From: a virus
IMG/VR virus record: IMGVR_UViG_3300022074_000161
Span: 1 to 35,854 of that record
DNA length: 35,854 nucleotides
Reading direction: 5' to 3' (one strand)
Each line of letters begins with the position of its first letter. Within the stretch, counting starts at the first letter, position 1. Shown here in pieces: positions 177 through 19,300 of the stretch. A program made the position numbers and the translations under genes. Under the pieces are notes generated by a model. It was not told the origin of the DNA. It made no database searches and saw only the letters and a list, made by a program, of their open reading frames with translations.

Positions 177-1025
177 TCACACGAAATTCTCCAAGTTTAT
201 GGTGTATTCTGATACTCGGTTTTGAATTAACTTACCATAAGATTCATGTAACTCACATCCAATATAGTGACGACCTAATGACTTTGCAACCATGCCAGTA
301 GTTCCTGATCCCATGAACGGATCAAGAATTATATCTCCCTTCTGACTACCTGACATAATACAAGGTTCAATTAACTCTGGTGGATATACTGCAAAATGTG
401 CATCTTTATATGGTTTAGTCTTAATGTTCCATACACTTTTTTTTCTTTTTAATCCTTTACCATCTATAGTTGATTCTTTAATTGAATCAACATCAAAGTA
501 ATAGTTTTTACTTTTACTTAATAAGAAAATATATTCATGTGATTTGGTGCATCTATCTCTTACACTTTCTGGCATAGGATTTGGTTTACTCCATATTATA
601 TCTTGCCTTAAATACCACCCATCTTTTCTTAATGCAAATGCTAACATCCAAGGGATTCCAATTAAATCCTTACTTTTATATCCCTCTAACTTATTCCCAC
701 GAACTGGGGAAAAACTGGGTAAATCTTGATTTGTTTTACTTACTGTTTGTTTTGGATAATTTCCATCACTACGATAGTTATAATAAGTATCTCCAATATT
801 AACCCACAATATTCCATCATCAGTTAGAACATCCCTCACACTACGGAATACTTCAACTAATTGTTCAATATATTTTTCTGGTGATTCTTCCATACCAATC
901 TGGTCATCTTCTCCACCATAGTCACGAAGTCCATAATATGGTGGTGAAGTAACACACATTTTTACTGGTTCAGTTATTGTTGGAATTGTTTTTCTACAAT
1001 CTCCGAATAGTATTGTATCCTTCAA
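177..1025 (-). CDS. Beta-class DNA methyltransferase (SPPY type, probably N4-cytosine)
   Basis: This 282-aa protein should transfer a methyl group from S-adenosylmethionine to an exocyclic amino group of a base in DNA. The catalytic motif IV (TSPPYYG, residues 26-32) comes before the SAM-binding motif I (DPFMGSGTT, 235-243), which is the order of beta-class amino methyltransferases. SPPY rather than DPPY favours N4-cytosine as product, but N6-adenine cannot be excluded. The length suits a solitary phage enzyme and no restriction endonuclease sits beside it. The start is TTG at 1025, overlapping the TGA stop of the 45-aa ORF upstream as TTGA, which suggests translational coupling. No in-frame ATG lies upstream of the catalytic motif within the ORF. 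It is the last gene of the modification cluster. Confidence 0.93.
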   Translation of the reverse strand: MKDTILFGDCRKTIPTITEPVKMCVTSPPYYGLRDYGGEDDQIGMEESPEKYIEQLVEVFRSVRDVLTDDGILWVNIGDTYYNYRSDGNYPKQTVSKTNQDLPSFSPVRGNKLEGYKSKDLIGIPWMLAFALRKDGWYLRQDIIWSKPNPMPESVRDRCTKSHEYIFLLSKSKNYYFDVDSIKESTIDGKGLKRKKSVWNIKTKPYKDAHFAVYPPELIEPCIMSGSQKGDIILDPFMGSGTTGMVAKSLGRHYIGCELHESYGKLIQNRVSEYTINLENFV

Positions 1026-1159
1026 TCTATCAATTCCTCTAGTCCTAAAAACTCCTCCATGTAATAGTCACAAGTGACTTCATAATAAGATGCTAGTGCT
1101 TCAATATCGTTGGCATCAATACCAACTTTTTCAAATAAATCAAGTGTTGAATCGTGCAT
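1022..1159 (-). CDS. Small acidic protein, 45 aa, unknown function
   Basis: An ATG ORF of 45 codons (starting MHDSTLDLFEKVGID, ending GLEELID) fills the gap between the helicase and methyltransferase genes. It is preceded by a good ribosome binding site (TGAGG, 7-8 nt before the ATG) and by an extended -10 promoter, and its TGA stop overlaps the TTG start of the methyltransferase. The protein is strongly acidic and probably helical, with tyrosines and one cysteine in the middle. I recognise no family. Placement and coupling suggest a partner or regulator of the methyltransferase, or simply a leader cistron that delivers ribosomes to its TTG start; this is inference. Confidence 0.72.
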   Translation of the reverse strand: MHDSTLDLFEKVGIDANDIEALASYYEVTCDYYMEEFLGLEELID

Positions 1160-1181
1160 TGTTTTACCTCATAATGTTTAT

Positions 1182-1210
1182 ATTATAGCATAGTTAACTA
1201 CGAACTATGC
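1182..1210 (-). promoter_or_regulatory. Extended -10 promoter with inverted-repeat operator candidate
   Basis: Minus strand. A TGCTATAAT extended -10 (TATAAT at 1182-1187) lies 22 nt from the ATG of the 45-aa ORF. At the -35 spacing there is only GCATAG, a poor match, as expected if the extended -10 compensates. The spacer and -35 region are occupied by a perfect 8-bp inverted repeat GCATAGTT-N7-AACTATGC (1188-1210), which also overlaps the stop codon of the helicase gene. The repeat could be a repressor site. Confidence 0.6.
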
Positions 1211-2366
1211 TGATTGCAGGTTGACCATCTTTGAATACTGTATCAACAACTGTCTGTACTTTTCTTGATGTACTAATACCAACCTTGTCATATACTGGAA
1301 TACATACAAGACCAAATTTCTTAGTGATGTCTCCCTTACGAATGACTCGACCAATCGACTGACTTATACCAATGTAGTCCATTGATCTTAGAAACAATAC
1401 TGCTTCTAGACCATTGACATTGATACCTTCTGAGAGTATGCTGTGATGTAAGACTACAAATCTCTTGTCTGTCTTACCCCACGCATTGAGAACATTGAAG
1501 AACTCTTCTCTTGTCACTTTCTGACCATCAATCACACCACCAGTTTTTGATGTAATATACATGTAAGAGTAACCTCTCCATGCTAACTCATCAACAAACT
1601 TTGAGAGTGCAATTAGACTTACGATTTGCTTTGTTGATCTGGCACATATCAAAACTTTATCAACATCAACATCATCAATCGTTTCTATGATATGGTCACA
1701 ATCTTTCTCATAACCAAATCTGCTATCGTCAGTAACATCAATCTTTTTGACTACAACTTTAGGTGGTAAAATGTGACCCTCATCAACTAACTTAGGTGCA
1801 GGTACATTACAAATGACCTGACCAAAAATGTCACTATCATTCATACCAACTTTCTTAGGTGTACGAGAGTGCTTGGGTGTTGCTGTAAAGAAGTAAGATC
1901 TCTTTGCATACATTGAGCAATACTCAACTGCTTCAATAAAGTTCTTTTGAACTGAGTTGTGTGCTTCATCAAAGTATATTGTATCAATCTCAATATCAAG
2001 TGACTCTGTAATTCTATGTAATGAATGATATGTTGTGAAGATCAACTGATTTCTGATGCCATTGTGATACCAGTTTTCAATCACTTCTGTCTTTGTACTA
2101 CTGAAGTGATGAGTCTCTCCACTATGAACGTGCATCACATCTACATTTGTGATATGCTCAAGAAAATCTGCTGATAACTGATTTGCAAGTAAGATACGAG
2201 GAGCAACAACAACAATAGTTTTTGATATGCTATTCATATCGAATCTATACTGTGCATCCTCGATCATGCACATTGTCTTACCACCACCAGTAGGCACGAT
2301 AATTTGACCCTTATCACACTTCTGCATAGCAACAAGTGAATCTAACTGATGTGAACGTAATTGCAT
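1194..2366 (-). CDS. SF2 DEAH-box helicase / translocase
   Basis: Superfamily 2 ATPase acting on nucleic acid. Counted in the longer 416-codon frame (which opens at TTG 2444), the motifs are Walker A PTGGGKT (51-57), DEAH (159-162), motif III TATP (187-190) and motif VI QSIGRVIRKG (362-371). This set resembles the type III restriction Res-subunit/UvsW-like group, but no nuclease domain is visible. I prefer the ATG at 2366 (390 aa, starting MQLRSHQLDSLVAM) because the 26 codons before it coincide with a strong promoter, and that ATG sits exactly as far from the -10 as the ATG of the 1015-aa gene does from its twin promoter. The TTG start at 2444, overlapping the 134-aa gene by 11 nt, is the alternative. 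It could work with the two upstream proteins, or as a phage recombination/repair helicase. Confidence 0.9.
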   Translation of the reverse strand: MQLRSHQLDSLVAMQKCDKGQIIVPTGGGKTMCMIEDAQYRFDMNSISKTIVVVAPRILLANQLSADFLEHITNVDVMHVHSGETHHFSSTKTEVIENWYHNGIRNQLIFTTYHSLHRITESLDIEIDTIYFDEAHNSVQKNFIEAVEYCSMYAKRSYFFTATPKHSRTPKKVGMNDSDIFGQVICNVPAPKLVDEGHILPPKVVVKKIDVTDDSRFGYEKDCDHIIETIDDVDVDKVLICARSTKQIVSLIALSKFVDELAWRGYSYMYITSKTGGVIDGQKVTREEFFNVLNAWGKTDKRFVVLHHSILSEGINVNGLEAVLFLRSMDYIGISQSIGRVIRKGDITKKFGLVCIPVYDKVGISTSRKVQTVVDTVFKDGQPAISIVRS

Positions 2367-2387
2367 TAAAATCTCATTAATACTATT

Positions 2388-2431
2388 ATTATAGCAAAAA
2401 ATACTCCCCTTTTCAAGACAGTGTGACAGTT
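2388..2431 (-). promoter_or_regulatory. Sigma70-like promoter P2 with upstream TGTGACAGTT element
   Basis: Minus strand: TTGAAA (2411-2416), 17-nt spacer, TATAAT (2388-2393) with extended TG. The plus-strand sequence TGTGACAGTT (2422-2431) begins 5 nt beyond the -35 and is one arm of a wider inverted repeat, TGACAGTT-CATC-AACTGTCA (2424-2443). Spacer bases TATTTTTTGC, the upstream element and all spacings match the promoter of the 1015-aa gene. It lies inside the extreme 5' part of the long helicase reading frame and would give a leader of about 15 nt to the ATG at 2366. Confidence 0.8.
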
Positions 2432-2433
2432 CA

Positions 2434-2838
2434 TCAACTGTCAAAAAATGTCTCTAACCCTATAGGTTCACCAAAACTATAGTCATAAGTAAGTGCATCA
2501 TGACAAACGTAATGTGGATGATCTACTGACACACCTAAACGATCACACATTTCTTTATGATTATCTTCCATCAATTCTATAGCATAAAGCATATTATTTA
2601 CTACATATTCTTCTGAATGGTATTCTTCCAATCTATCTTTTAATGCAACAAGAAAATTACCATTACCTGCTGAAGGATCTATAAAAGTAGATTTAGGATC
2701 TTTTAATACATTTGAAGAAATACGATTTACCATTAAATTACATAATTCTATAGGGGTAAATACTTCTCCTGTTGAATCAATCCTAAAATCAGACCTTTCT
2801 ATATCTGATCCTACATTTTGATTATGTTTATTCTTCAT
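2434..2838 (-). CDS. Short N6-methyltransferase-like protein carrying only the SAM-binding half
   Basis: 134 aa. Motif X STGEVFTP (22-29), motif I IDPSAGNGNF (53-62), an acidic motif II region (AIELMED, 86-92) and a motif III-like CHDALTYDYSFG (112-123) match the N-terminal half of gamma-class N6-adenine methyltransferases (HsdM/Eco57I type). The protein stops where the catalytic NPPY motif would normally follow, so by itself it should bind SAM but not methylate. Short phage proteins of this kind exist, so I treat it as a gene rather than a broken one. Its ATG overlaps the TGA of the 1015-aa gene as ATGA, implying coupled translation. The upstream neighbour has the complementary feature: a clear NPPY but a degenerate motif I. 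Confidence 0.82.
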   Translation of the reverse strand: MKNKHNQNVGSDIERSDFRIDSTGEVFTPIELCNLMVNRISSNVLKDPKSTFIDPSAGNGNFLVALKDRLEEYHSEEYVVNNMLYAIELMEDNHKEMCDRLGVSVDHPHYVCHDALTYDYSFGEPIGLETFFDS

Positions 2839-5800
2839 GGAATATTCTTAATGACTTCCTTAGTACTCCATCCACTAAATTTAGTAAGCATTAATGCTTT
2901 TCTGATTTTCTCCGAATCGCAGTAATCGCAATATTCTTGTGCTTCCTCTAAATTATCAAATCCAGTAGTAAAAACTTGAATTTGAGTAAGTCCTTTATTA
3001 TGAACTACTTTAAACTCTGGAAAACCAGATAGAGTAACTGCTACTCTAATTTCTTTATTAATAGAAACATCTTCATTAGTATAAAAAGACTGAGAATTTG
3101 TATGCAAAACTTCTATCTTTCCATCAGAATCTTCCCATTTCTTACGATTTTGAGCATGATAATTACATTTAATTTCCCATTTTCTACCACCAGTAAGAGT
3201 ATTATTTACATACTCAACATTCTCTAAAGTAATATTATTAGGTAAAATAGATATATCTTTTAATGGCAACTCAATAGAACCATTCACTGTTTCAATTAAA
3301 CATTTATCTTGAATAGTATCCTCCACTGTAAGAACAACGAATGTAGATCCAACTTTGGGAAAATACTTTTTAACATCTGTACGAATATATGAAAGATATG
3401 GACGAATAGTATCAAAATGAGTTGATGGAGATATTTGAGAGGAAGGAACTACGAATGAAGTAGTCTTTGCTTTCTTCATTGCTTGTAATAAAAATAATTT
3501 ATGAAGTTTTTTATTACTATTTCTATCTAATGTAGAATAAGGTGGGTTGCCAATACAATAAGTTTTCTCTTTGTTCATTTTGTAATCCTCAATGTTGTTT
3601 AAAATATTTATTTGAGAAGAAATACTCTTAATTAAAAATCTGTGTGTTGAATTATTTTCCCACACCCAAATTTTAGAGGGTAATATACCCAAGTGTTCTA
3701 TTGCATAAGAACAGCAACTTCCACTAGGGTCTCCAACAATTAAAACATTCTCATCTTCTTCAACTTTAGGAAGTAATTTCCTAAGAAGATTTAAAGGAAT
3801 AACTTGTTGTGTTGCCTTTGTTATTCTAAAGGAATCTAGTGTTTTTGTAAAGTCTTTATGAACATTTTTTTCTATAATCGGATTGTTTTGATGTATTATT
3901 GTGGTAATATCTTTTGAGTTAATATCTTTTGTTTCAAGTAAATTGGATAATACTAATTGTGTATCCTGAGTAATAGGTATATAAAATTTAGATGTAAGTA
4001 ATTCATCAACTGTTCTTATCTTATTACCTGATTTAATGGCATGACTTAACACTAATGGTATAGACTTTAAAACATTTTTTAATTGATCTCTCTTTTCATT
4101 TTTTTCTTTCTTTGTTAATTCTCGATCAGGAAATATTGTTTTCTTTGCACTCAATTCGTTAGTATCATTATCACTAATAATAGAGCATTGTGGTTGCTTA
4201 TCTGATAACACACTTACATCATCAAGATTTTCATATAATAATCTTTCATCAGGTATAGACTTGGCAAGATTCTCAAAAGTTCCCTGTACATTGTCTTTAA
4301 TGTCAACGGAAAGAATATCAATAATATCATCATGAGATAATTTAATGAATCCATCATTCCACTCATAAACATTAACAAAGTCAACCATCTTATAATCTAA
4401 TAGTTCTTGATTATCCACTCTTGCTATGATAAACGAATTATCTAAACATTTAATTGCTCTTCTAGGTGCAAAATCAATTACATCCCAATCATGTGTTCCA
4501 CTTCCTCCACGAAAACTTAGTTGCATCCATTTTTCTATTGATGTACCTCCCCACAAGTGAACTACACAATCCCACTTCTTACAAGTAACACCTAATATAT
4601 TTGCTTGAACTGTGAGACAAATGGTTTTAGTATTCTCGTTGACAAACTTATTGATTGTATCAGAATTATGTCCACTCTCTCCTGTAATAACTAGAGGTGC
4701 ATATTCTTTTATGTAAGGTAAAGATAATTTACACGCTGCAACACTTGGAAGTGCTGCGACAATATGATTACACTTAACAATAATACGATCATAATTTCTT
4801 ATATGTCTCTGAAGAGTTGTTGTGAAATATTTGTTCCAAAAATTAGAAACTAAGTCAGGATTTAAAAATTCTGTACCATCTTCATTTGTATGAAATATGT
4901 TAGTAAAGGCATCTGGGTCATTACCAAATATTTGCCTATACTCATTATCTATTTTTGGATATGATACATTCATCTTAGGATATTGACCTTTATAATATAA
5001 TTGCTCATCCCAGTATGAATAAACAAAACGATTATCTTTAGAATATTGCCATGCTTGGTCATATGCTGTGCCAGATACCTTGAGACATTTTGCATCATTA
5101 AATTTATTTCTAACTTTTTTAAATTGGTCTGCATCTTCTCCAATATGACACTCATCAAACACTAATAAATCAATATCAGTTATTCTATCTAATGCAATTA
5201 ATTTTTTACATTTAGATGAACACAACCCTTGAATAGTTGACCAAAAAACTATTTGAATATTACTATCATCTTTCCATCTTTCATATTCTTGTTGCCAATC
5301 ACTTTTATATAGATTAACTATTCTTACATTCTTAAATTTATCGTACTCTTCACAATCTTCAATCCAAGATTGTTTAGGAGAATTAAATCTTGATACAATT
5401 AAAGTTCTAGACACATTTGCATCTACAATAGCAGAGAAAGTCATGATGGATTTTCCAGCACGACATTTAGCAAAAAGTAAAAATTCTTTCCACTTCTCCC
5501 AATTAGAAATAATCTTTTTAACAAAGTTTTTTTGATGTGGACGTAACTTTAATACTTCTCTTGTTCTTTGTATAAAAAACTTTTCTTCAATAAGATACTT
5601 GACAACATCAATACTTAGTCCATGACCCTCTTCAATTTTATAAGTTTCTCTACCAATTTGGGTGATACCAGATTTCTTTTTTAACCAAGCATGTATATCA
5701 TGATCTCTACCATCAAAATCTGTCCACCATCCTTTTTTTATTCTTGCACTACCTACTGCTTCTAAATCTTGTTTTGACTTAGTATAGTCTCCACCTTTAT

Positions 5801-5882
5801 GTCTTTCTTCATATGTGTGTATGGTTTCTCCTAAACCAAAGGCAGACGGATTACCTTTAAACCCATCAAGATAAATGTTCAT
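2835..5882 (-). CDS. Helicase-methyltransferase fusion (type ISP/DarB-like architecture, no visible nuclease)
   Basis: 1015 aa. Residues about 110-500 form an SF2 helicase: Walker A AKCRAGKS (138-145), DECH (243-246), motif III SGTAY (270-274), and a motif VI-like QLSFRGG (454-460). After a charged linker of about 190 residues, the C-terminal part resembles an N6-adenine methyltransferase, with a deviant motif I DPSGSCCSY (718-726), a clear motif IV NPPYS (779-783) and a likely target-recognition tail (to about 1000). Helicase followed by methyltransferase and recognition domain is the layout of type ISP restriction enzymes and resembles helicase-methylase proteins such as P1 DarB. I see no PD-(D/E)XK nuclease in the first 110 residues, so anti-restriction or modification is more likely than cleavage. 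It starts at ATG 5882, 22 nt from a strong -10, and heads the modification cluster. Confidence 0.88.
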   Translation of the reverse strand: MNIYLDGFKGNPSAFGLGETIHTYEERHKGGDYTKSKQDLEAVGSARIKKGWWTDFDGRDHDIHAWLKKKSGITQIGRETYKIEEGHGLSIDVVKYLIEEKFFIQRTREVLKLRPHQKNFVKKIISNWEKWKEFLLFAKCRAGKSIMTFSAIVDANVSRTLIVSRFNSPKQSWIEDCEEYDKFKNVRIVNLYKSDWQQEYERWKDDSNIQIVFWSTIQGLCSSKCKKLIALDRITDIDLLVFDECHIGEDADQFKKVRNKFNDAKCLKVSGTAYDQAWQYSKDNRFVYSYWDEQLYYKGQYPKMNVSYPKIDNEYRQIFGNDPDAFTNIFHTNEDGTEFLNPDLVSNFWNKYFTTTLQRHIRNYDRIIVKCNHIVAALPSVAACKLSLPYIKEYAPLVITGESGHNSDTINKFVNENTKTICLTVQANILGVTCKKWDCVVHLWGGTSIEKWMQLSFRGGSGTHDWDVIDFAPRRAIKCLDNSFIIARVDNQELLDYKMVDFVNVYEWNDGFIKLSHDDIIDILSVDIKDNVQGTFENLAKSIPDERLLYENLDDVSVLSDKQPQCSIISDNDTNELSAKKTIFPDRELTKKEKNEKRDQLKNVLKSIPLVLSHAIKSGNKIRTVDELLTSKFYIPITQDTQLVLSNLLETKDINSKDITTIIHQNNPIIEKNVHKDFTKTLDSFRITKATQQVIPLNLLRKLLPKVEEDENVLIVGDPSGSCCSYAIEHLGILPSKIWVWENNSTHRFLIKSISSQINILNNIEDYKMNKEKTYCIGNPPYSTLDRNSNKKLHKLFLLQAMKKAKTTSFVVPSSQISPSTHFDTIRPYLSYIRTDVKKYFPKVGSTFVVLTVEDTIQDKCLIETVNGSIELPLKDISILPNNITLENVEYVNNTLTGGRKWEIKCNYHAQNRKKWEDSDGKIEVLHTNSQSFYTNEDVSINKEIRVAVTLSGFPEFKVVHNKGLTQIQVFTTGFDNLEEAQEYCDYCDSEKIRKALMLTKFSGWSTKEVIKNIP

Positions 5883-7692: not shown

Positions 7693-10600
7693 TTAAAATA
7701 AAGCATAACCATTCTCTGAAACCGAACTCGTATTGGTGCTATAAGAAACAGAACCCATTGCTTCAATATGAACAACATAATGATGATACGCAGCAACAGT
7801 TGCATAGATGTCAATATATTGTGCATAATCATTTCCTGGTGAAGAATTAGAAGAAGTAGTATGGGATATAACACTTGAACCTATCGAACCATTCTTATCT
7901 TCGTGTCCTAAACTCCAAGTTGGAGTATAACCACCAGTATTTCTACCGTGACCATTTACCCACCACACTGCTTCATTTGTAGCAACATAATAAACTTGCT
8001 TGAGCCATATTTTATAGAATCCTGCTCCCCAATAATGTCTTCTAACTCTCATCAAATTAATAGTTGCACTTGATCCACCTGCACTTATGTATCTTGTATG
8101 TGTTCTCAGGGCATTTGACTCCATGTGCTCAAGTGTAGCATAACCTCCTGATGTTGTGCTAGGAGATCTATAGATTATTACTGATCCAGTATCTTTAATG
8201 CGAAGTCTTTCTGTTGGTACAGTGTTTGCATCACCTGTAACTCCACGGGTTCCAAATGCTAAATCACCTACACTATTACTACCTTGTCTTACATGTCCAA
8301 TATAAGCACCAGCATAACTTGTGGTAGAACCACTTTCTGAAAATACGATTTGTGGGCCTTGTCCAACTGTTGCACTATCTCCAGTCAACATTATATGTCC
8401 TTTGTTTGTCTGGAATGTAGATGCACCACGAATTAGTAGTTGATTACCATCTGGATCATCTTCACCAATACCAACTTTACCATCACCACGAACAACTAAA
8501 TGAGGATTATTTTCATCATATCCAGTAGCATATAGAGTATAAGTTGAAGATGAATTACCAGCTCTCAAGAAAATACCATTTCCACTCGTGTGATCACTTC
8601 TTAATTGTGCTAACCAGTTATTACTACCAGAGGAATAAACTTTAACAACTGGATCATAATCTTGACCTGTTATTGCTTGACCACCAACCTTATTTGTTCC
8701 GTGAGCAGTATTTCCAAGATGAACATAACCGTCTTCTGTAATTCTGACTCTTTCACTAGGACTTGTAGTACCGTAGTTTGTACCAAAACTTAAATATCCT
8801 GCACAGTCATAATCAGCAATCGGAGTGGTTGCTATACCTTTGATAAATGCAGCACCAAGATATCTTGTACCATCACTACCACTAAAATTAATATGACCAA
8901 TTTCATCATCTGCTGCAACTGCTGTGTGGTTTCCAATTGTTGCATTTCGTGATTTGGAAAATTCTAAACGGGCAGGATTAGCATCTGTAGACCATCTACC
9001 TATTGCTGCACTTGAGTCATCTCTAGCCGTTCCTGATATTTGAAGTGCAGCATTCTGTGCTTCATGCCTTACAACATTTGCAGTGTATCCGATTAGTAAT
9101 CTTCCTTCATTATCGATACGCATCCTCTCCTGTGGTGTGCCACCAGGACAAGTAACGAATACTGTATCCATTCTATTATTACCAGCAACATTTACACAAT
9201 TGATTGCATTATATCGATCATCAGGAGATGCTGCACTTGCCACCATTTTAATCTGTACTTCTGTATTTGCATTATTAGCAGCATTCACTAATACTAATGC
9301 CTGTGTAGTCGCAGCACCATTTGATGTTTTAACGTGTATTCCACCTGGAGTAACATTTGTTCCAGTTTCTCCACCTGTTAATATTCTACCATCTGTGTCG
9401 ATGCGAAGTTTTGCGGTATGTGATGTATAAAAAGTGAGAGAATTATCACCGTGATAATACTCAATAAGTCCTTCATATCTATCAGCACCACTTCCGTCAG
9501 TGCTGTCTCCAAAAGCTATTGATCCAAAATTGGTGCCTGATCCACTTGCAATAGTAATGCCTCTATTTCCAGATGCATTTCCAACAATAATATCATCCAT
9601 ATTTGGATGAGCAAGGTTGTCAGTTCCGTTAACAATTACTTGACCATCTGATGTGATACGAAGTTTTTCACCACCACTAGTGCCAAATCTTAAATCAACA
9701 GTTTCGGTACTACCAGAGTTTGCTTCGATATAACAAGTTTCATTATTATTTGAATTATCTCTTGCCATTAAATTAATTTTGGCAATCGAGTTCGCAGTAT
9801 CATGAGTTTGTAAAGTTAACGTAGCAGCTGGTTGTCCACTACCTTTCAACATATGCATATCGCCATAGAATTTTGCCTTTCTACTATTATCAATTTCAAT
9901 ACTAGTACCATAGATGTTTCTTAATTTTAATATATCACCATCATGGTTATATAAAATTCCACCCCTAAGACCACTAGCAGGACTTCCAAAATAGATAGAA
10001 CCTCCACCAGTATCGCTTGTGGATGTCATATTTATTGTTGGTGATCCATGTCTATCGAGATAGAGTACACTTGATCTAATATTTCCATTAACATCAAGTT
10101 TTTGTGCTGGAATTTCACTTCCGATACCCACTCGACCATTAGATGCGATGGTAACTCTTTCTACACCACCTCCATCCTCATCCATAATTCTAAGACGATC
10201 ATTAGCAATGACTGTCCATTCACCATTTGAATTATGCATTTTCACACCAGCGTTTCCTGACCCTGCATTTTCTACTGTAATGAAAGTATTGGCAGTATCT
10301 ACTTTATTGATAAGTGTTAATGAAGTTCCATCAACTTGAAGATTTGATGCTGGAACATCAGTTCCGATACCAACTTTACCATCAGCTGCGATACGAAGTC
10401 TTTCTTCATCTGATGTAAAAAATGTTATTGGTCTATATGCACCACTTTTACCACTATAGAAAGAACTTCTTATCCTTGCTTCATTACTAGTTAAATGAAG
10501 TCCAATAAATTCTAGATTTGCAGGATTTTTAGATGCGATTTCACCATTGGCATCTAATGTAAATTGAGGAGTATCAGTTCCAAGGCCAACTTTACCCTCA

Positions 10601-11241
10601 TCATCAACTGTAACTACCTGTGATGCACCATCATATAATCTAACTATATCTGCTGTTCCGCTTTGTGTGACCGCAATACCTGTGACTGTATTACTATTTG
10701 CTCCGACTTCAACTCGATCTACACCAATCAAATTTGTATCAAGTGTAGTGGTTGTTCCTTCGACTGTTAAATTATTGACTACTCTTAAATCATAAAATGT
10801 TGAGATACCACTTGGATTGTTTATTGGGGAACCAAGTATAAGCCCACTAAAAGATGTTGCAGTTAATATTCCAGTTACGACAGCTCCTGTTTCAGCTGTT
10901 TCAAATTTCTTTACATCATTATGATATAAATTTACTTGCCCATCAGTTTGACACCAGATAGAATTTTTAGCACCATTTCGGATATATAAATTTCCCGCCC
11001 CAGTCTCATCAATAAAAGAGTGACTGCCATTATGATATAATTTTAAATCCCCATCATTTCCAAATTTAAGTTTTACATTATCATTAAGTTCCAGTGCATC
11101 ATCTGAAGAGTCGAATATCGCAGAGTTGACACCAACCTGTGTTCCACGAAAATGTGCGTCACCATGAAGAATCGCACCAGACAAAGAAGTTCCCGTTGCG
11201 ATTCCAGATGTTGATATTCTCGTAAGGTCGGTGAGTGCCAT
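7693..11241 (-). CDS. Long tail fibre / adhesin, 1182 aa
   Basis: Virion fibre built from a stalk of repeated units with the pattern E(R/K)LRI..DGKVGIG..P, about nine copies spread over the first 1060 residues, separated by beta-rich segments. It starts MALTDLTRISTSGIATG, a short N-terminal segment typical of marine phage fibres that may join the tail. An early KLKFGNDGDLKLYHNGSH segment is a repeat often seen in such fibres. Residues about 157-218 carry the module shared with the other fibres. The last 120 residues (GYATLEHMESNALRTHTRYI to the C-terminus) lack stalk repeats and are rich in W, Y and H, so they are the likely receptor-binding tip. The 127-aa chaperone-like gene lies directly downstream. 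Confidence 0.88.
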   Translation of the reverse strand: MALTDLTRISTSGIATGTSLSGAILHGDAHFRGTQVGVNSAIFDSSDDALELNDNVKLKFGNDGDLKLYHNGSHSFIDETGAGNLYIRNGAKNSIWCQTDGQVNLYHNDVKKFETAETGAVVTGILTATSFSGLILGSPINNPSGISTFYDLRVVNNLTVEGTTTTLDTNLIGVDRVEVGANSNTVTGIAVTQSGTADIVRLYDGASQVVTVDDEGKVGLGTDTPQFTLDANGEIASKNPANLEFIGLHLTSNEARIRSSFYSGKSGAYRPITFFTSDEERLRIAADGKVGIGTDVPASNLQVDGTSLTLINKVDTANTFITVENAGSGNAGVKMHNSNGEWTVIANDRLRIMDEDGGGVERVTIASNGRVGIGSEIPAQKLDVNGNIRSSVLYLDRHGSPTINMTSTSDTGGGSIYFGSPASGLRGGILYNHDGDILKLRNIYGTSIEIDNSRKAKFYGDMHMLKGSGQPAATLTLQTHDTANSIAKINLMARDNSNNNETCYIEANSGSTETVDLRFGTSGGEKLRITSDGQVIVNGTDNLAHPNMDDIIVGNASGNRGITIASGSGTNFGSIAFGDSTDGSGADRYEGLIEYYHGDNSLTFYTSHTAKLRIDTDGRILTGGETGTNVTPGGIHVKTSNGAATTQALVLVNAANNANTEVQIKMVASAASPDDRYNAINCVNVAGNNRMDTVFVTCPGGTPQERMRIDNEGRLLIGYTANVVRHEAQNAALQISGTARDDSSAAIGRWSTDANPARLEFSKSRNATIGNHTAVAADDEIGHINFSGSDGTRYLGAAFIKGIATTPIADYDCAGYLSFGTNYGTTSPSERVRITEDGYVHLGNTAHGTNKVGGQAITGQDYDPVVKVYSSGSNNWLAQLRSDHTSGNGIFLRAGNSSSTYTLYATGYDENNPHLVVRGDGKVGIGEDDPDGNQLLIRGASTFQTNKGHIMLTGDSATVGQGPQIVFSESGSTTSYAGAYIGHVRQGSNSVGDLAFGTRGVTGDANTVPTERLRIKDTGSVIIYRSPSTTSGGYATLEHMESNALRTHTRYISAGGSSATINLMRVRRHYWGAGFYKIWLKQVYYVATNEAVWWVNGHGRNTGGYTPTWSLGHEDKNGSIGSSVISHTTSSNSSPGNDYAQYIDIYATVAAYHHYVVHIEAMGSVSYSTNTSSVSENGYALF
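10586..10770 (-). repeat. Fibre paralogous module, copy A
   Basis: Encodes the segment from TTTLDTNLIGVDRVEVGAN through GTADIVRLYDGASQVV to VDDEGKVG. It is strongly similar at DNA level to 14877-15065 and, less closely, to 19579-19770. Confidence 0.8.
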
Positions 11242-11257
11242 TTATATCTTTTTTAAA

Positions 11258-11265
11258 TATTTATT
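11258..11265 (-). promoter_or_regulatory. Late-promoter-like AATAAATA, unit of the 1182-aa fibre
   Basis: Minus-strand AATAAATA 17 nt upstream of the ATG at 11241, overlapping the TAA stop of the 61-aa gene. It matches the T4-family late motif TATAAATA in seven of eight positions. Same octamer as at 20737, 25237, 28784 and 34657. Confidence 0.62.
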
Positions 11266-11446
11266 CTTGAACTACCCTAAGATGTTCGGAACTTATACCA
11301 ACAGCAGTTGATGAAAGATAATCAATCACGCATTGTGTTTGATCTTCAGTTAGTCCAGTGTACTCATCTAACAAAGTAGATGTTGTTGCAGCACTCACCC
11401 AACTTCCATCTTTGTATTCTTCAATTTTGTAAGTTTTAATGTCCAT
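11261..11446 (-). CDS. Small protein, 61 aa, between two fibre genes
   Basis: Starts MDIKTYKIEEYKDGSWVSAA and contains LLDEYTGLTEDQTQCVIDYL, so it appears to have a beta N-terminal part and an alpha C-terminal part. A very strong ribosome binding site (TTAGGAGG) lies 6 nt before the ATG, and the gene is 13 nt past the stop of the 1386-aa fibre, with which it shares a promoter. The position after a fibre gene suggests an accessory or chaperone role, but no family is recognised. Confidence 0.8.
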   Translation of the reverse strand: MDIKTYKIEEYKDGSWVSAATTSTLLDEYTGLTEDQTQCVIDYLSSTAVGISSEHLRVVQE

Positions 11447-11459
11447 AATAACCTCCTAA

Positions 11460-14400
11460 TTAAGATATGGATGCACCAGATAATGAACCATAATAAATTT
11501 TAAGAACCACTCCACGAGATCCAACAGAACCAGAGGCCATAGTTTCTGAAATTCTAAATCTTCCAGTGTTGTTAGTACTAGATCCTTCATGACCACCTCC
11601 ATATCTAGCTCGATATGATGCACCAGGACTACCTGCTTCAGTTAATCCACCTTTCATATCGACTGAACCACCTCCACTTTGATCACTTACAGTAAATGAT
11701 ACTGATAAAGCACCACCATTACCACTGTGCTCATATATGAATCCTGTATGAGCATAGTGGTTATTTGCCCACTTACCCCTTACATAATGGTGCATATGAT
11801 GTCCACCGTTGGTTTGATGTTGAACGTAGGTAAACTCTGAATGGAAATAACTTCCACAAGTAAAATCAATCGTGTAACTTTGTTGTCCACTCCATGTAAA
11901 GTGATATTCATTAAATACTGGAGTTGATAATACAAGACCTGACCTAGTAAATCCACTATATTCGTTATCAACTCTTGCAACTGTCAATGCGTTATAAAAT
12001 CTTGCATCACCATTACTCTGAAGTCTTAGAACTTCTTTATCAGAGTTATTAACAGTAAAACTCATATCCGCATTACTACTTCCAGAAGTAACATTCTGAC
12101 ACTTTATACTACCAGTTTGTTCATCATTATTACCCTTAAATTGGATCTGAGTTCCATATCCTGTGCCTGTGGCGTATCTATTAACTAATTGTAGAACGTT
12201 TCTGGTACCATTATCATCAAATCTAAGAATCATATGAGAAAACTGTTCAGTGCTTCCATTCTGTTGGATTGTCATATAACGATTTGCACTATTGTCCCCA
12301 ACCCATAATGCAGTTTCAGTGCCCATCACATTGGATGTATTAATATGAAGTGCACCTAGAGCTGTACCACTATTTCCTTCGCCAATATTAATTCGATTAT
12401 CACTCTGGATTTTCATTGGCGTATTCCAACTTATAGTTCCAGTTCCTGATCCAGCATTTCTAAAGTAGAAATTACCATCATCCATTCCAATATCAGAGGC
12501 ATGATCATTCGCCATGTATGTCCAATTACCCGATGTATTGACATAAGCATTATTGGATAGGAAGGATGCACCACCATCGTCAGCCTGCCATATTCCATAA
12601 TTATTAAGTTGAATACTTTTATATGCAGAAAAGATAGATACTGGTGTACAATTAACTCCTATATTACCATCTGCTGCGATGCGAAGCCTTTCATTATTAC
12701 CATGATAAAAAGTATAAGGCCCAGTTGCTGCTGCTTGCCAGAAGTTCACCGAGTTAGCACCACCATAACCAGCACCAGAAGCACCTGGCCCTTGATTCCA
12801 AATCTGGAAATTCAAAGTTGGAGTTTTTAAATTTATTCCTGTGTAATTGGAACTTGTTCCTGTATTTTCAATCTTAGCATAAGTGGTCGTTGTTGATTGT
12901 TTAATATGTAAATGTTGATCTGCACCACCAGCACCTATCAAAAACATACCATTTGTGTCAAGTTTTGCTTTTTGACCACCAGTACCAACATAAATTGCTA
13001 AAGGAACAGTTGTGCTTGTAAGATAATTTTCAGTAGCACCACCCTCACCTTCAAGTCTAAATTGTGCATATCCTGATCCTCTTCCTTTCACACATATGGT
13101 TGTATTTGTTACTCCACTTGGAGGAAGAACATCCATTTCAAATTCTGGTGAAGTACTATTAATACCAACTCTACCAACATTTGTGATGCGGAATTTTTCT
13201 GATTGAGAACCACCAAATGTATTACAAGTTTCAATTGTAAATGAAGTACCAGTTCCATCATAAAATCCTGAAAGAAGAACTGCATTACCCGCATTACCAC
13301 TACCTGCTCCCAATTGAATTCCAGCACCAGTTCCAGCACCAGATGAATTATTACCAAGTTTTAATAATTGTGATACAGCACCATCATTTGAAGAATCTCC
13401 TATACTTAATTTTGCAAAGGGGTTGTTAGTATCAATACCCATTCTTCCTTCTGATGTGATACGAACTGCTTCTTGAGGTGAAGTTGCTCCACTAGTTGGA
13501 GTTGTTGAGAATATTATATCAGATGGAATTCTATCATTTGCAGGAGTTCCTGTTGCCTGAACAGCAATTTCTGCACCTCTTGCGTATAAATCACTATCAT
13601 CAGCACCTATAAATGTAAGAGATCCAATGAAATCATTCTGATTTGGTTTAGTAACTGAACCTATTGAAGTTCCTCTTGTTTTAATTAATTGTATTTCAGG
13701 GCCATTATCATCATTAGAACTCCGAATCATCGACATTCTAGTAGAATTATTACCAGTTCCTTCAATTAATAATACTTGATGTTGATTACTTCCCTTTGTA
13801 TTTCTTCTAGTTTCTCCAGGCCCAATTATGAAAGTTCCAAACTCATCAATACATGCTCTGTCTGCAAGCACTCTACTTGAATTTGCTACTGAAAAATGTA
13901 ATTTAGATGCATTATAAGAAGCACCACCTTTAGCACTTATCTGTGCTTGTGCAGTATTTGGATTATTATTCCAGAATGCTATACCTGGTCTTGATGACTG
14001 TGAATTTGTATAACTTGTAAGTTTGAGTAGATTAGCAGTTCCAGTTCCTATTGCATTTCCAATTTCAACTAAAGTATCTGGACTATCAGTTCCGATACCA
14101 ACTCTACCAGTTGTTCCTTTGATGGTTATTCTTCTTTCTGCAACAGATGATCCAGCAGTATAAAAATGAACACCACCATTATCACTCTCATTAACACCTA
14201 TATCAATTCTTGCATGATTATTATTAGCACTTGTGCTTTGAAGTTTTAATACACCAGTAGCACCATCATCTCCATATATTACTCCTCCACCATTAGCAGA
14301 ATGAAGTGATATACCTGTTGATACAAGACGCATGACCTCACTACCAGCAGATGAATTTCTGAAAAATCTGAGTTCTCTGCTTACACCACTAGATGAGGAT

Positions 14401-15620
14401 GCGTACATTCCAAAATAACCAGATGCGTTGTATAGTATTCCTCGATTATTTCCTGATTGAGTTCCAGCAAAATAAACATTTCCATTACTTGCGATACGGA
14501 ACATTTCAGTTGTATCTGATGTTTGGAATATTGCATCCGAATTAGATGAATAAACTGCAGCACCACCAATATTAGCAATCGAAACATCTGCACCATTATC
14601 ATCATCTTCTAAAATAATTTTTGGTGATGCATGATTGATTTGGAATGAAGCAGTTGGAGTATGAGTTCCGATACCTAATTTTCCATCACCAGTAATTCTT
14701 GCAACTTCTGCTGATCCACGGAAAATAAAATCACGAGAAGAAGAATTTGTATAAAGATATAAGTTTCCACCTTCACCACCGATTGTTGAGTGTACATTAC
14801 TATCGGTATCAGTCAATCTAATTAAAGGATTGGCACTTGCCAAGTTTAATAATGCACCTGGTATTGCACTTCCGATACCAACTTTACCTTCATCATCAAC
14901 TGTAACTACCTGTGATGTACCATCATATAATCTTAATATATCTGCTGTTCCACTCTGAGTTATTGCTACACCTACTACAGTACTACTATTTGCTCCAACT
15001 TCTATCCTATCTACACCTATTAAGTTTGTATCTAATGTTGTTGTGGTTCCATTTACTGTTAAATCTCCACCAAGAACTAAGTTACCACTTATATCTCCAT
15101 TTCCGTTTACATCTAATCCTGTGCAAGTAACAACACCTGCATTAATTCCACCACTACCACCACTGAATGATGATGCTGTTAATATTCCACTTATATTTGC
15201 ATTTCCAATTACATCTAATTCTTGTTTTGGTTGTAAACTACCAATACCAACTCGATTATTTGCATCATCTAAGTAAAAGAAACCATCATAGTTGAATGGT
15301 TTTGCCATTTGTGTGCCATTTACTGTCCCATTACCAGGCACACCAATTCCAATTGGAACTGCTAAAGCAAGACAGAAAAATCCATCCTGTGCTGTAGGAG
15401 CATTCGCAAATGTTATTTCGCTATTATTAATTTGATACGCAGACTCTGGTTCTTGTATAACACCACCAACAGAGACTAAAATCGAGAAGGCAGATCCTGG
15501 TCTAAATGCAGAACCTCCTACTGTTAAATTAAATGTTTGTGTTGATCCATTAAAAGATGAACTTATATCATCTAACTTTAAATAATTACCACGATTTAAG
15601 TCTCTACCTATATAAGGCAT
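11460..15620 (-). CDS. Long tail fibre / adhesin, 1386 aa
   Basis: The N-terminal 115 residues (MPYIGRDLNRGNYL, then FNGSTQTFNLTVGG and GGVIQEPESAYQINNSEITF) form the beta-sandwich seen at the head of many marine phage fibres, likely the tail-attachment part. A long stalk of VGIGS..P and RI..DGK.GIG repeats follows, with the shared paralogous module at residues about 185-247. The tip (about 1235-1386) is unlike the other fibres: it is rich in H, Y and G, has HHMHH at 1274-1278 followed by NNHYAH, and ends with a glycine/serine-rich beta segment. The histidine cluster could bind metal, as in other fibre tips, but this is inference. It shares a unit with the 61-aa gene and is preceded by a GATAAATAG late motif. 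Confidence 0.88.
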   Translation of the reverse strand: MPYIGRDLNRGNYLKLDDISSSFNGSTQTFNLTVGGSAFRPGSAFSILVSVGGVIQEPESAYQINNSEITFANAPTAQDGFFCLALAVPIGIGVPGNGTVNGTQMAKPFNYDGFFYLDDANNRVGIGSLQPKQELDVIGNANISGILTASSFSGGSGGINAGVVTCTGLDVNGNGDISGNLVLGGDLTVNGTTTTLDTNLIGVDRIEVGANSSTVVGVAITQSGTADILRLYDGTSQVVTVDDEGKVGIGSAIPGALLNLASANPLIRLTDTDSNVHSTIGGEGGNLYLYTNSSSRDFIFRGSAEVARITGDGKLGIGTHTPTASFQINHASPKIILEDDDNGADVSIANIGGAAVYSSNSDAIFQTSDTTEMFRIASNGNVYFAGTQSGNNRGILYNASGYFGMYASSSSGVSRELRFFRNSSAGSEVMRLVSTGISLHSANGGGVIYGDDGATGVLKLQSTSANNNHARIDIGVNESDNGGVHFYTAGSSVAERRITIKGTTGRVGIGTDSPDTLVEIGNAIGTGTANLLKLTSYTNSQSSRPGIAFWNNNPNTAQAQISAKGGASYNASKLHFSVANSSRVLADRACIDEFGTFIIGPGETRRNTKGSNQHQVLLIEGTGNNSTRMSMIRSSNDDNGPEIQLIKTRGTSIGSVTKPNQNDFIGSLTFIGADDSDLYARGAEIAVQATGTPANDRIPSDIIFSTTPTSGATSPQEAVRITSEGRMGIDTNNPFAKLSIGDSSNDGAVSQLLKLGNNSSGAGTGAGIQLGAGSGNAGNAVLLSGFYDGTGTSFTIETCNTFGGSQSEKFRITNVGRVGINSTSPEFEMDVLPPSGVTNTTICVKGRGSGYAQFRLEGEGGATENYLTSTTVPLAIYVGTGGQKAKLDTNGMFLIGAGGADQHLHIKQSTTTTYAKIENTGTSSNYTGINLKTPTLNFQIWNQGPGASGAGYGGANSVNFWQAAATGPYTFYHGNNERLRIAADGNIGVNCTPVSIFSAYKSIQLNNYGIWQADDGGASFLSNNAYVNTSGNWTYMANDHASDIGMDDGNFYFRNAGSGTGTISWNTPMKIQSDNRINIGEGNSGTALGALHINTSNVMGTETALWVGDNSANRYMTIQQNGSTEQFSHMILRFDDNGTRNVLQLVNRYATGTGYGTQIQFKGNNDEQTGSIKCQNVTSGSSNADMSFTVNNSDKEVLRLQSNGDARFYNALTVARVDNEYSGFTRSGLVLSTPVFNEYHFTWSGQQSYTIDFTCGSYFHSEFTYVQHQTNGGHHMHHYVRGKWANNHYAHTGFIYEHSGNGGALSVSFTVSDQSGGGSVDMKGGLTEAGSPGASYRARYGGGHEGSSTNNTGRFRISETMASGSVGSRGVVLKIYYGSLSGASIS
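14877..15065 (-). repeat. Fibre paralogous module, copy B
   Basis: Encodes TTTLDTNLIGVDRIEVGANS through GTADILRLYDGTSQVV to VDDEGKVGIG. It is the closest DNA match to copy A at 10586-10770, with most differences at third codon positions. Confidence 0.8.
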
Positions 15621-15651
15621 TCTGTTACCTCATTTTTTTCTCAGAATAAAA

Positions 15652-15894
15652 CTATTTATCCTTCTTAGTTGGTGCCTCTTCTACTACTTCTGGAGTTGCT
15701 TCTGCTGTTGGTGCTTCCTCTTCAGTTTCTTCAGGAATTTTCACACCGAGTTGATCTAGATATTCTGCAATACCTTGTAATTTGACGGCCATCTCACGCT
15801 TTGATGTGATCTGGTTATTAAGAGCATTAATCTCGTCAACTAAAGTTTTTTGCTGTGTTAAAACTTGCTTTAAATGATTTTCTTGGTCAGTCAT
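15652..15894 (-). CDS. Coiled-coil virion-associated protein, 80 aa
   Basis: Residues 3-50 (MTDQENHLKQVLTQQKTLVD onwards, with an L/I/V heptad pattern) should form a coiled coil. The tail (IPEETEEEAPTAEATPEVVE) is acidic and proline/alanine-rich, ending in KKDK, and is probably disordered. I associate the MTDQENxLKQVL start with small proteins in the fibre region of T4-like cyanophages. It follows the 107-aa gene by 67 nt. It may be a trimerising accessory protein; function is not known. Confidence 0.82.
   Translation of the reverse strand: MTDQENHLKQVLTQQKTLVDEINALNNQITSKREMAVKLQGIAEYLDQLGVKIPEETEEEAPTAEATPEVVEEAPTKKDK
15653..15659 (-). promoter_or_regulatory. Late-promoter-like ATAAATA, unit of the 1386-aa fibre
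   Basis: Minus-strand GATAAATAG 33 nt upstream of the ATG at 15620. The TAG stop of the 80-aa gene forms the end of the motif (AAA-TAG). It differs from the AATAAATA octamer in its first base. Confidence 0.55.
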
Positions 15895-15961
15895 TCTTAA
15901 TAAATTGATTACTTGTCTATTATATATGATACTTTACAAAGTGTCAACTATACGGTTTTTT

Positions 15962-16285
15962 CTATGATCCACCAACACCAGCTTGAGCATAATCAGCAAC
16001 CAACTTTGCCCTCCATGACTCTTTAACTGATGCTGTCCAAACAGCTGTGCATATTGCTTTAACTTCGTCTGCAATAGATGTGACTCCATCAGGTTCTTTA
16101 TCTAGTGGATTATCAACCAAATTATTGGAACCATCAAGATCACCTGGATCTAACACAAATCTTGTAAAAGATCTTGTAAGTTCTTTACCATCTTTTTTGA
16201 TGACGCTAGCTTTTCGGACATGTACTGCTTTCCATTGTCCAATAACTTCTATTTTATCGTATTCGATTGTTTCGGTAAGTGCCAT
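15962..16285 (-). CDS. Small conserved virion-region protein, 107 aa
   Basis: Starts MALTETIEYDKIEVIGQWKA and continues with a beta-rich domain (AVHVRKASVIKKDGKELTRS). The C-terminal helical half is IADEVKAICTAVWTASVKES. The pattern MAL.....DKIEV.G..KAV.VR...VI..DG.ELTRSF.R recurs in marine phage structural regions as far as I recall. It has a GGAG ribosome binding site 11 nt before the ATG and lies 70 nt downstream of the 1453-aa fibre, within the same unit. Exact role unknown. Confidence 0.82.
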   Translation of the reverse strand: MALTETIEYDKIEVIGQWKAVHVRKASVIKKDGKELTRSFTRFVLDPGDLDGSNNLVDNPLDKEPDGVTSIADEVKAICTAVWTASVKESWRAKLVADYAQAGVGGS

Positions 16286-16355
16286 TTAGGATTAATCTCC
16301 GATTAAAACGGGTTTATGGTGCTTAGTTTTAAGACTTAACTTCGGTCTAATATAT

Positions 16356-19300
16356 CTATGAAGTTTGATAAGTTCCAGCAAACATCATATAACGAGAACT
16401 CTCAGATCCCCATCTGCCATTTGATGTGCTTCCTCCTATGTTTGGATAAAATACTTTTGATCCATACTGAGCATATCCTGTATAACAATCATATAAATTA
16501 TTACTTGTGTTTTTAAAACAAGTTGTATGAGTAAATGTAAACTGTCCACCGTAATAGGGATCATTGTTCATAAACACGTAAGGTAGACCCCAAATTCTTG
16601 CTGCCTGAGTATTGAAAGTACCATCTGTACTAAAAGCACCAGTATAATACCAAACATGAACAAGATTACCTATTTTTGTATATCTTGCTGTTGTATATTC
16701 TAAAGCATCATCAAAGGTAACATTAACCCATGAACTACCATTATATGCTTGAAGAGCTGGAGTCCATGAGCCCTCTTCATAATCATCCAAAAGTTCGCTA
16801 CTACCTGTACCTTCAGTTGGGCCAGCAGTTGCAGAGAAGTCAATACCATGACCAGAAGTTCCTATTTGTAAATCACCATTAACAATCTTAAGATGACGGT
16901 CAGGATTAGTTCCTACATTATGATCGTCATTGTAAGTTAAACCACCCCAATCATTCTTATATGGAACGGTGTTTACTGGAAGTCCTGCGTCTCCACTAAT
17001 TGCAGTAGTATCATAAGTCCAACCTCTGGCATAATCTTCACTACCAGATGCAGAATAATAATCTGCAACATAAATTTTAAACCAATATCCAAGACTATCA
17101 AAATGAATTACGATCTTACCACTTTCAACTCCAAGAGTGATTAAAGGAGCCCAACCACCACTACTTGAGGCAATACGATTATAGAATTGGCCAGCATATA
17201 CGTGCCAGCAGATTTGTATATCTACTGTATCTCTTCCACCGTATCTAAAACCTCTGATGGTTACAGATTCTGCGTGTGAAAATCCAGTGTAAGGTATGTT
17301 TGTTTTTATTTTAAGTTGTGATGGAGTAGAACTACCTGTAATTTCTAAAATTCCGTGAGATAGTCGTGCATTGCTGTTCACCCTTTGAGTGAGAACTCCA
17401 CCATTTTGGAGAATCAGTCTCTCATTACCAGCAGTGTACATCTGAATTTTACTTTGAATAGTACCAGAATTACCTGCTAGAAATTGTAACGTACCGCCAT
17501 TACCACTATATTCATTACCATGCAATGCAATTTGAGCACCTCTAGTTTGTCCTGATGCACCTCCACCACCGATTATTATTCTTTTATTATCAGAACCGTC
17601 AGAAGTATTTGAAGTTATCTCATGATCTGTACCAGTTAATTGAATATTACCGTCAGATTTAATGCGAAGTCTTTCAATATCATTTCCAGAACCGACTCCA
17701 GTTTGAAATATAATATTACCACCTGTTCCTCCACCCTCATAAGTAGTAAACATTGCATTACAATTGGAGGTATGATATTCAGTATGATATGCTTCACTAC
17801 CAGAAGTTCTTGTTGTTATTTGTAAAGCAACATTTATTGGTGCAACAGTGTCACCAGGTCTACCCATTAATATACCACCACCATCTGCTGGTCGTATGGT
17901 TAATTCTTTTGTAATTTGAGTTGCACTGTGGTGTCCAATACCAATTTTACCATCTGATGTGATGGTAAATCTTGTAGTATTACTTGATGTAGTTCTAAAG
18001 TTTAAAGATCCAGTCTCATTATCAATATATCCATTACTACCTCCGTGCCAAATACTCAGATCCTGATGTTCACCAAATTGTAATTTTTGAGAATCATTTG
18101 GTAACTGAATACTAGCATCAGGTTCAATTCTTAATGCTGTTTTACTAGCACCAGCAGCCGAACTAACAACCATAGATATTCTACCATCATCTTTGTTCGT
18201 GGTATCGTCACCAGATTGTAAGTAAATTTGACAGACGTTATTTTGATTATTCCATCTTCCTTCCAATATTCCTAAAGCTGATGATGCAGCTGTTCTTGCT
18301 GCATCAAATCTCATTGACGTGTATTCGTTTCCAGTATTTCTTAATCTTAATCCTAATCCCTGTGTAGTTGAAGTTATATTAAGTAAACTTGCATCATAAG
18401 TTAAAGTTGATTCACCAACTAAGTTTGTTCCACTACCACCAGTAATTACTCTGTTGTCTGCATTGCCTGTTATCGTTACCTGTGTTGGAATTGCACTCCA
18501 AGTTGGTGCACTACTTGAACCACCACTTGTTAATACCTGACCAGATGACCCATAATTTGCTCCAGCGATACCAATTTGACCTGCAGATCCGATGCGAAGT
18601 CTTTCTGCTAAAGTTCCAGAATGTCTTGTCTGAATTGCAAAATCAGCAGAGGAACTCGTAGAATTGTTTAGACAGTTTAAGTTAACAACTCCTTTTCCAT
18701 TTCCATCAGAATACATGTGTATTCCAGAAGAGTTTGTAGCAGCAGAGGAATTAATATTTCCAATTGCTAATTGAGCACTCGTTGCATTTGCTGCATATGC
18801 GGTATTATGAGCTTCTCGTACATCTAATTTGTAAGATGGAGAATTAAGATTAGTTCCGATTCCAACTTTACCATCTGAGTTTACAGTGAGATGGTCATTA
18901 GCACCATGAGTAAGATTTATGGCACCAGTTTTATGATTATTAATGAATAAATGCTCAGTAGCATTTTCATACATTCCAATTTGATATTGTGCAGCATTAC
19001 TAGAATCTCTAACGAGATAATTCTGCGTAAAACTATTTCCACCTGCATTAGGAGACTTGATATCTATATTTCCACTCGGTCTAATGAAAGTTTGACATCC
19101 ACCATTTTCAATTTGGAATGAGTTTGTATAACTACCTGTGTGATGATAAACGATAGTTCCAGCATTTGCATCTGCTGAATCACCAAAGAAGATATGATTG
19201 TATGAACTTGCTAATAACTGAATGTCTGCACTACTTTCAGTACCTGCAGATATTATTAATTGTGCTCTTCGACTACTTATCTGTGGTGATCCGTATGATG

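What the first reader, a model, noticed from the sequence alone, without database searches (positions are those of the whole stretch)
177..5882. Phage-encoded helicase/methyltransferase cluster without a visible nuclease
Four proteins in a row carry the parts of a restriction-modification machine: a helicase-methyltransferase fusion, a SAM-binding half-methyltransferase, an SF2 DEAH helicase and an SPPY methyltransferase. I see no PD-(D/E)XK, HNH, PLD or GIY-YIG signature in any of them. Seen: the motifs and gene order. Known: type ISP and type III enzymes and phage P1 DarB combine helicase and methylase activities. Inferred: this is an anti-restriction or modification system, or a compact phage-borne defence against rival phages whose nuclease is unrecognised.
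Basis: partly seen in the sequence, partly recalled or inferred. Interest (0 to 1): 0.8.

Follow-up and report, generated by a model that had tools for sequence, protein, structure and literature searches.

The report
Phage-borne split methylase with nuclease-motor
A marine cyanophage carries a two-gene restriction-modification machine whose DNA-methylating enzyme is split into a conserved cofactor-binding piece and an exchangeable DNA-recognising piece fused to a motor and a probable nuclease, which suggests how one recognition piece could serve both protecting and cutting DNA.

Summary
The four ORFs are real but are not one machine. The 1015-aa and 134-aa proteins are an obligate pair; the SF2 helicase and SPPY methylase are neighbours that occur widely without them. 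The 134-aa protein is the SAM-binding half (motifs X, I, II, III) of a split m6A methyltransferase. The 1015-aa protein carries the NPPY catalytic and recognition half behind a degenerate SAM half, a coupler, an SF2 motor and an N-terminal GIY-YIG-like domain, so a nuclease candidate is present. A natural fusion in Aeromonas phages, a clean natural deletion of the nuclease-motor module in five contigs, and convergent loss of motif I across partner types support the split. The same components form the DrdVI family (cloned M1-2.DrdVI and M1/M2.MaeIV methylate DNA), so the kind is known, though only from brief mentions. Apparently new: it is phage-borne, modules are exchanged around a conserved core, and a start codon is conserved at the junction, with Shine-Dalgarno signals in actinobacterial relatives. 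I infer that one recognition half pairs either with the live SAM half (methylation) or with a dead SAM half tethered to the nuclease-motor (restriction).

The parts
2835..5882 (-). Partner gene, 1015 aa: GIY-YIG-like domain, SF2 motor, coupler, degenerate SAM half, NPPY catalytic/recognition half
   Evidence: homologues beside the core in all testable loci
5568..5882 (-). Residues 1-105, divergent GIY-YIG (T5orf172-like) domain, candidate nuclease
   Evidence: invariant Y4, G18, D32, D60, E79; relatives hit T5orf172 at 5e-8; hhalign 92% and 84% against at most 0.5% for an unrelated control set; strand/helix order in the model
4383..5555 (-). Residues 110-500, SF2 helicase-like motor
   Evidence: ResIII 8e-13; RadD Z 20.0 over 110-538
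3768..4325 (-). Residues about 520-705, helical coupler
   Evidence: helical in the model; alignment to PacII M subunit starts at 524 and to LlaBIII spans it
3579..3749 (-). Residues 712-768, degenerate SAM half (LIVGDPSGSCCS in place of a GxG motif I)
   Evidence: type T1, found with this helicase family in 14 of 15 loci, the exception being a truncated contig
3576..3578 (-). Conserved in-frame ATG (Met769), candidate internal start; 247-aa product; GAGG 8 bases upstream
2838..3578 (-). Residues 769-1015, catalytic half with NPPY (779-782, bases 3537-3548) and target-recognition region
2434..2838 (-). Core gene, 134 aa: SAM-binding half, motif X GEVFTP (2752-2769), motif I FIDPSAGNGNF (2653-2685); ATGA overlap with partner stop at 2835-2838
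1194..2366 (-). Neighbouring SF2 helicase of general cyanomyovirus type (start re-assigned to ATG 2366); not shown to belong to the system
177..1025 (-). Neighbouring SPPY (beta-class order) DNA methyltransferase, CcrM-like; not shown to belong to the system

Best explanation
The 1015-aa and 134-aa genes form a phage-borne restriction-modification system of the DrdVI split-methylase kind. The small core binds SAM. The C-terminal half of the large protein holds the NPPY active site and the DNA specificity. Together the two make the m6A methyltransferase that protects the phage genome. The large protein also carries a degenerate SAM half joined through a coupler to an SF2 motor and a GIY-YIG-like domain. 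Inferred step: in the full-length protein the recognition half folds with this dead half, recognises unmethylated sites without methylating them, and licenses the motor and nuclease to cut host, satellite or rival-phage DNA. The free recognition half that pairs with the core would be made from the conserved junction start codon. Shown by sequence: the split, the linkage, the degenerate half, the modularity and the conserved start codon. Inferred: nuclease activity, alternative pairing, internal initiation in phages, and the target.
For: Core and partner are adjacent in every locus with enough DNA, searched from either side. Natural fusion in Aeromonas phages: residues 1-264 match a partner (9e-25) and 284-369 the window core (5e-13); its model aligns as one methyltransferase domain, MboIIA Z 9.9. 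Motif I intact in 78 of 78 cores, GxG absent from all partner halves, with different lesions per type. Codons 1-775 precisely missing in five contigs, catalytic half kept, core kept in the four long enough. Degenerate half present with nuclease modules in 48 of 50 loci, absent in 32 of 32 without. Start codon conserved at the junction in 58 of 58, 0 of 21 in canonical enzymes, with Shine-Dalgarno sites in 11 of 11 fused actinobacterial genes. The homologous M1-2.DrdVI and M1/M2.MaeIV methylate DNA when cloned. 1015-aa model top hit is Type ISP LlaBIII.
Against: No activity data for any phage member. The GIY-YIG assignment of the window domain rests on weak profile links through relatives; Pfam and PDB searches with it alone fail. 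AF2 models are of moderate quality (pTM 0.45 and 0.63). Partners with a full degenerate half look like complete methyltransferase folds (PacII M alignment), so how the core would replace that half is unclear. Shine-Dalgarno signals are not enriched in phages and mixed in Bacillota. The window's motor motif VI looks unusual.
Confidence: 0.7

Rival explanations
1. Modification only: core plus catalytic half methylate phage DNA to evade host restriction, and the GIY-YIG-like/motor part is not a nuclease but helps loading or is a decaying remnant.
For: About 40 relatives keep only the catalytic half and core. The N-terminal domain is divergent and its activity untested.
Against: The nuclease-motor module is kept in several unrelated forms, always with its own degenerate half. 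The DrdVI subunit is described as a fused translocase and REase.
Confidence: 0.2
2. The conserved junction Met is only a scar of repeated fusions upstream of a stand-alone catalytic gene, with no internal initiation.
For: Module boundaries fall exactly at this ATG in L064 against L194. No Shine-Dalgarno enrichment in the phages; weak in two lactic acid bacterial copies.
Against: The Met persists in every fused lineage sampled. 11 of 11 fused actinobacterial genes have a Shine-Dalgarno match of 4 or more before it, against 15% of other in-frame ATGs in the same genes (p 8e-8, related sequences). In the one exception found the codon is GTG, also a start codon.
Confidence: 0.3
3. All four genes act together as one anti-restriction or restriction complex.
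For: They are adjacent and co-oriented, and P-SSM2 has a similar order with a helicase and a methylase after its core.
Against: Helicase and SPPY methylase relatives are scattered over many phages without the core; several core loci lack one or both.
Confidence: 0.07

Closest known systems
DrdVI (M1-2.DrdVI and DrdVI, plasmid pDrdVI) and MaeIV, 'split methylase/RM' family
   Same: Separate small SAM-binding subunit; Eco57I-type catalytic half with a degenerate SAM half before it; GIY-YIG-like plus SF2 protein; junction Met at -8
   Different: Phage-borne; nuclease-motor, degenerate half and catalytic half are one chain here; much shorter core (134 against 212 aa); different type of degenerate half; many exchangeable partner types around one core
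Type ISP restriction-modification enzymes (LlaBIII, LlaGI)
   Same: Motor, coupler, methyltransferase order; top structural hit
   Different: ISP is a single chain with an Mrr-family nuclease; here motif I in the chain is degenerate, SAM binding is in a second protein and the N-terminal domain is GIY-YIG-like
M.AquI and M.EcoHK31I (natural two-polypeptide methyltransferases)
   Same: One methyltransferase made of two polypeptides (PMC3404938)
   Different: C5-cytosine enzymes split elsewhere, without a nuclease-motor or a dead half
Aeh1-type Aeromonas phage protein (Aeh1p090)
   Same: Homologous catalytic half and core
   Different: The two are fused in one 415-aa chain, with no nuclease-motor module

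Membership tests
DrdVI-like split methylase RM | separate SAM-binding subunit homologous to M1.DrdVI | tested here: met
   32% identity over 94 aa, E 1e-10; motif X and I intact
DrdVI-like split methylase RM | Eco57I-type catalytic half (M2) with NPPY and no canonical motif I of its own | tested here: met
   NPPY at 779-782, degenerate motif I; direct similarity to M2.DrdVI shown for the relative L019 (6e-11), not for the window protein itself
DrdVI-like split methylase RM | SF2 translocase fused to a GIY-YIG domain | tested here: inconclusive
   SF2 part homologous to the actinobacterial relative (3e-12); GIY-YIG part only by profile links
DrdVI-like split methylase RM | site-specific m6A methylation by M1 plus M2 | not testable with these tools
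   shown for DrdVI and MaeIV in the literature
Type ISP | motor, coupler, methyltransferase in one chain | tested here: met
   LlaBIII top hit, E 6e-14; alignment 109-887
Type ISP | functional SAM motif I in the same chain | tested here: not met
   GDPSGSCCS, no GxG
Type ISP | Mrr-family nuclease at the N-terminus | tested here: inconclusive
   no Pfam hit; domain groups with GIY-YIG-like relatives
GIY-YIG superfamily (T5orf172/MUG113) | conserved Tyr/Gly/Arg/Glu motif pattern and fold | tested here: inconclusive
   Y4, G18, D32, D60, E79 invariant, R in most; two relatives over Pfam cut-off; window domain itself below detection
P1 DarB-like anti-restriction protein | packaged in the virion, protects injected DNA | not tested
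   no virion proteome available

The most novel reading that the evidence does not exclude
A single recognition/catalytic half serves two enzymes by pairing with two alternative SAM halves: a live one (methylation) and a dead one tethered to an exchangeable nuclease-motor (restriction). The free half is made by internal translation initiation at a start codon that is also the swap junction. Cyanophages exchange nuclease modules at that codon while keeping the SAM subunit constant.
Probability: 0.45. Interest if true: 0.9.

Novelty: new variant of a known kind. Interest (0 to 1): 0.7.

Why it matters
It puts a restriction-modification system with a nuclease candidate inside marine cyanophages, and it offers a concrete, testable assembly rule: one recognition half, two SAM halves. 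The rule would explain how modification and restriction keep the same specificity while being made in different amounts. It also turns a family known from brief mentions (DrdVI, MaeIV) into one with an architectural and translational rationale, spanning cyanophages, Actinobacteria, Deinococcus and lactic acid bacterial plasmids.

Tried and rejected
The four proteins as one machine: rejected, because relatives of the helicase and the SPPY methylase are scattered. Core as phage-specific: rejected after the genome scan and its follow-up. Categorically new split methylase: rejected after finding DrdVI and MaeIV. Direct identification of the N-terminal domain by Pfam, PDB profile or own-genome search failed. 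Direct hhalign against the two T5orf172-matching phage domains was weak until relatives were added. The PD-(D/E)XK-like neighbour family had no significant Pfam or PDB match. Shine-Dalgarno test in phages uninformative. Full-text searches for a split adenine methylase in cyanophages found nothing.
Full report
The observation. The four ORFs are at the stated places on the minus strand of a 35.9-kb virus record. Pfam and PHROG support helicase and methyltransferase assignments. The 134-aa protein matches a fixed-length family, PHROG 4376, found in cyanophages of the P-SSM2, S-CAM7, ACG-2014f and Bellamy groups.

A split methyltransferase. The 134-aa protein has motifs X (GEVFTP), I (FIDPSAGNGNF), II and III and ends where motif IV should follow. 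In 80 IMG/VR loci an exchangeable ORF with motif IV (NPPY, or NPPF, NYPY, NFPY, NSPY) lies beside it wherever the contig is long enough, usually overlapping its start by a few bases. Searching from the other side, with P-SSM2_036 as query, 51 of 53 new loci contain the core; the other two contigs end inside the partner gene. In Aeromonas phages the two are one protein: residues 1-264 match a cyanophage partner (E 9e-25) and residues 284-369 match the window core (E 5e-13). The AF2 model of that fusion (pLDDT 74, pTM 0.63) aligns over residues 1-371 as one methyltransferase domain with beta-class enzymes such as MboIIA (Z 9.9, 144 residues). Its N-terminal part alone aligns to the catalytic half of CamA and TaqI, and residues 296-411 to SAM-binding regions of Trm14 and DrdV.

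The degenerate half. Most partners also carry a SAM-half-like stretch before NPPY, of five cyanophage types plus one further variant. None keeps the GxG of motif I, and the lesions differ between types, while every core keeps it (78 of 78). About 40 relatives have no such stretch and begin eight residues before NPPY. The stretch is present with a nuclease-bearing module in 48 of 50 loci (the two exceptions are truncated contigs) and absent in 32 of 32 loci without one, and each type goes with one module. Part of that association is trivial, since several types are fused to their module, but types T1, T3 and T4 also show it with separate genes.

A natural deletion. Five contigs are colinear with L064 at about 76-92% nucleotide identity on both sides of a gap. 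Exactly codons 1-775 of the L064 partner (GIY-YIG-like domain, motor, coupler, degenerate half) are missing, and the match resumes at the ATG of codon 776. The catalytic half (86% identical) remains, and so does the core in the four contigs that extend far enough.

The window's large protein. Its model (pLDDT 65, pTM 0.45) has LlaBIII, a Type ISP enzyme, as top Foldseek hit (E 6e-14). The motor aligns to RadD (Z 20.0) and residues 524-897 to the PacII M subunit (Z 17.6). Residues 1-105 run beta-beta-alpha-beta-alpha-beta-alpha in the model. They share invariant Tyr, Gly, Asp, Asp and Glu positions with 17 relatives, of which two match T5orf172, at best 5e-8. Profile comparison gives 92% to a set of cyanophage relatives and 84%, after pooling with that set, to DrdVI-type and actinobacterial domains; an unrelated control set gives at most 0.5%. 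I read this as a divergent GIY-YIG domain; nuclease activity is untested.

Bacterial relatives. A genome scan with the core profile found the same three components in 27 of 30 bacterial loci, nearly all actinobacterial: a core of about 215 aa, a roughly 1100-aa KIG-type SF2 protein ending in a degenerate half (FADLFSTAG), and a roughly 350-aa catalytic half starting M-x-K-K-F-D-V-V-I-G-N-P-P-Y. A second actinobacterial variant fuses degenerate (DPxxKSG) and catalytic halves. In evenly drawn samples of the phylum, 11 of 296 genomes had the core and 11 of 396 the fused partner. On plasmids the system occurs in Lactococcus, Leuconostoc, Latilactobacillus, Arthrobacter and Deinococcus.

Prior art. 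The Deinococcus plasmid is pDrdVI and holds no other recognisable RM gene. M1-2.DrdVI, cloned in E. coli, is assigned m6A in GCAGCC (PMC6430315). [quoted passage not shown] These papers establish that cloned M1 plus M2 methylate DNA. They do not discuss a dead half, internal starts or phages in the passages read. No paper on a phage member was found in the library searched.

The junction start codon. A Met lies 8 to 10 residues before the NPPY asparagine in 58 of 58 fused phage partners, against 13% for a random ten-residue stretch, and in 0 of 21 canonical single-chain enzymes from Actinobacteria. It coincides with the start codon of stand-alone catalytic halves. In fused actinobacterial genes 11 of 11 have a Shine-Dalgarno match of at least 4 bases before it, against 15% of 93 other in-frame ATGs in the same genes (p 8e-8). 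The sequences are related, so the p-value overstates independence. Among lactic acid bacterial plasmids the signal is mixed (5, 3, 3), and DrdVI itself scores 4. In one Lactococcus copy the residue is Val, but the codon is GTG, also a start codon. In cyanophages the Shine-Dalgarno test is uninformative, because stand-alone starts lack the signal too. The window's own site has GAGG eight bases upstream.

Mechanism. Shown by sequence: split, linkage, degenerate half, module exchange (14 partner-type changes on the core tree, where 6 is the minimum) and conserved start codon. Inferred: the recognition half pairs with the core for methylation and with the dead half for restriction. This explains why the dead half comes and goes with the nuclease module and why the methylation parts survive its loss. 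The target (rival phages, satellites or host DNA) is unknown. A phage nuclease of vibriophage ICP1 acting against a subviral parasite is reported in PMC8263062 (abstract seen, paper not read here), so attack on competing elements is plausible.

Verdict. On sequence evidence, a phage-borne relative of the DrdVI-like split-methylase systems, with a new arrangement and a testable assembly hypothesis. The helicase and SPPY methylase next door are ordinary neighbours.

Noticed in passing
window 7693-22722: Several large tail-fibre-like ORFs (449-1453 aa) directly upstream; P-SSM2 has its core at a similar place beside tail fibres, so this may be a hypervariable locus.
   Followed up: no
L022, L026, L042, L050, L080: Two NPPY-type partner genes in tandem before a single core, as if one SAM subunit served two specificities.
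   Followed up: partly
L007:7436-7999 (Bellamy 87), L008 (ACG-2014f C90 gp052): A 187-200-aa family with an E...D..GIDG...QxKxK pattern, PD-(D/E)XK-like, next to the core and without a significant Pfam or PDB match; probably the nuclease of another module type.
   Followed up: partly
L005:8538-9926 (PSSM2_038) and relatives: A ParB-like protein with a GNHR motif lies between core and helicase in several loci.
   Followed up: no
window 1026-1230, minus strand: A possible short ORF (about 45 aa, MHDSTLDLFEKVGIDANDIEALASYYEVTCDYYMEEFLGLEELID) between helicase and SPPY methylase, where P-SSM2 has a 58-aa ORF.
   Followed up: no
L096: The core at 63% identity in a contig binned as a Rhodobacteraceae MAG, perhaps phage DNA in the bin.
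   Followed up: no
S-CAM7 records (hits H1, H4-H6): Two places per genome match the 134-aa core; the second was not examined.
   Followed up: no
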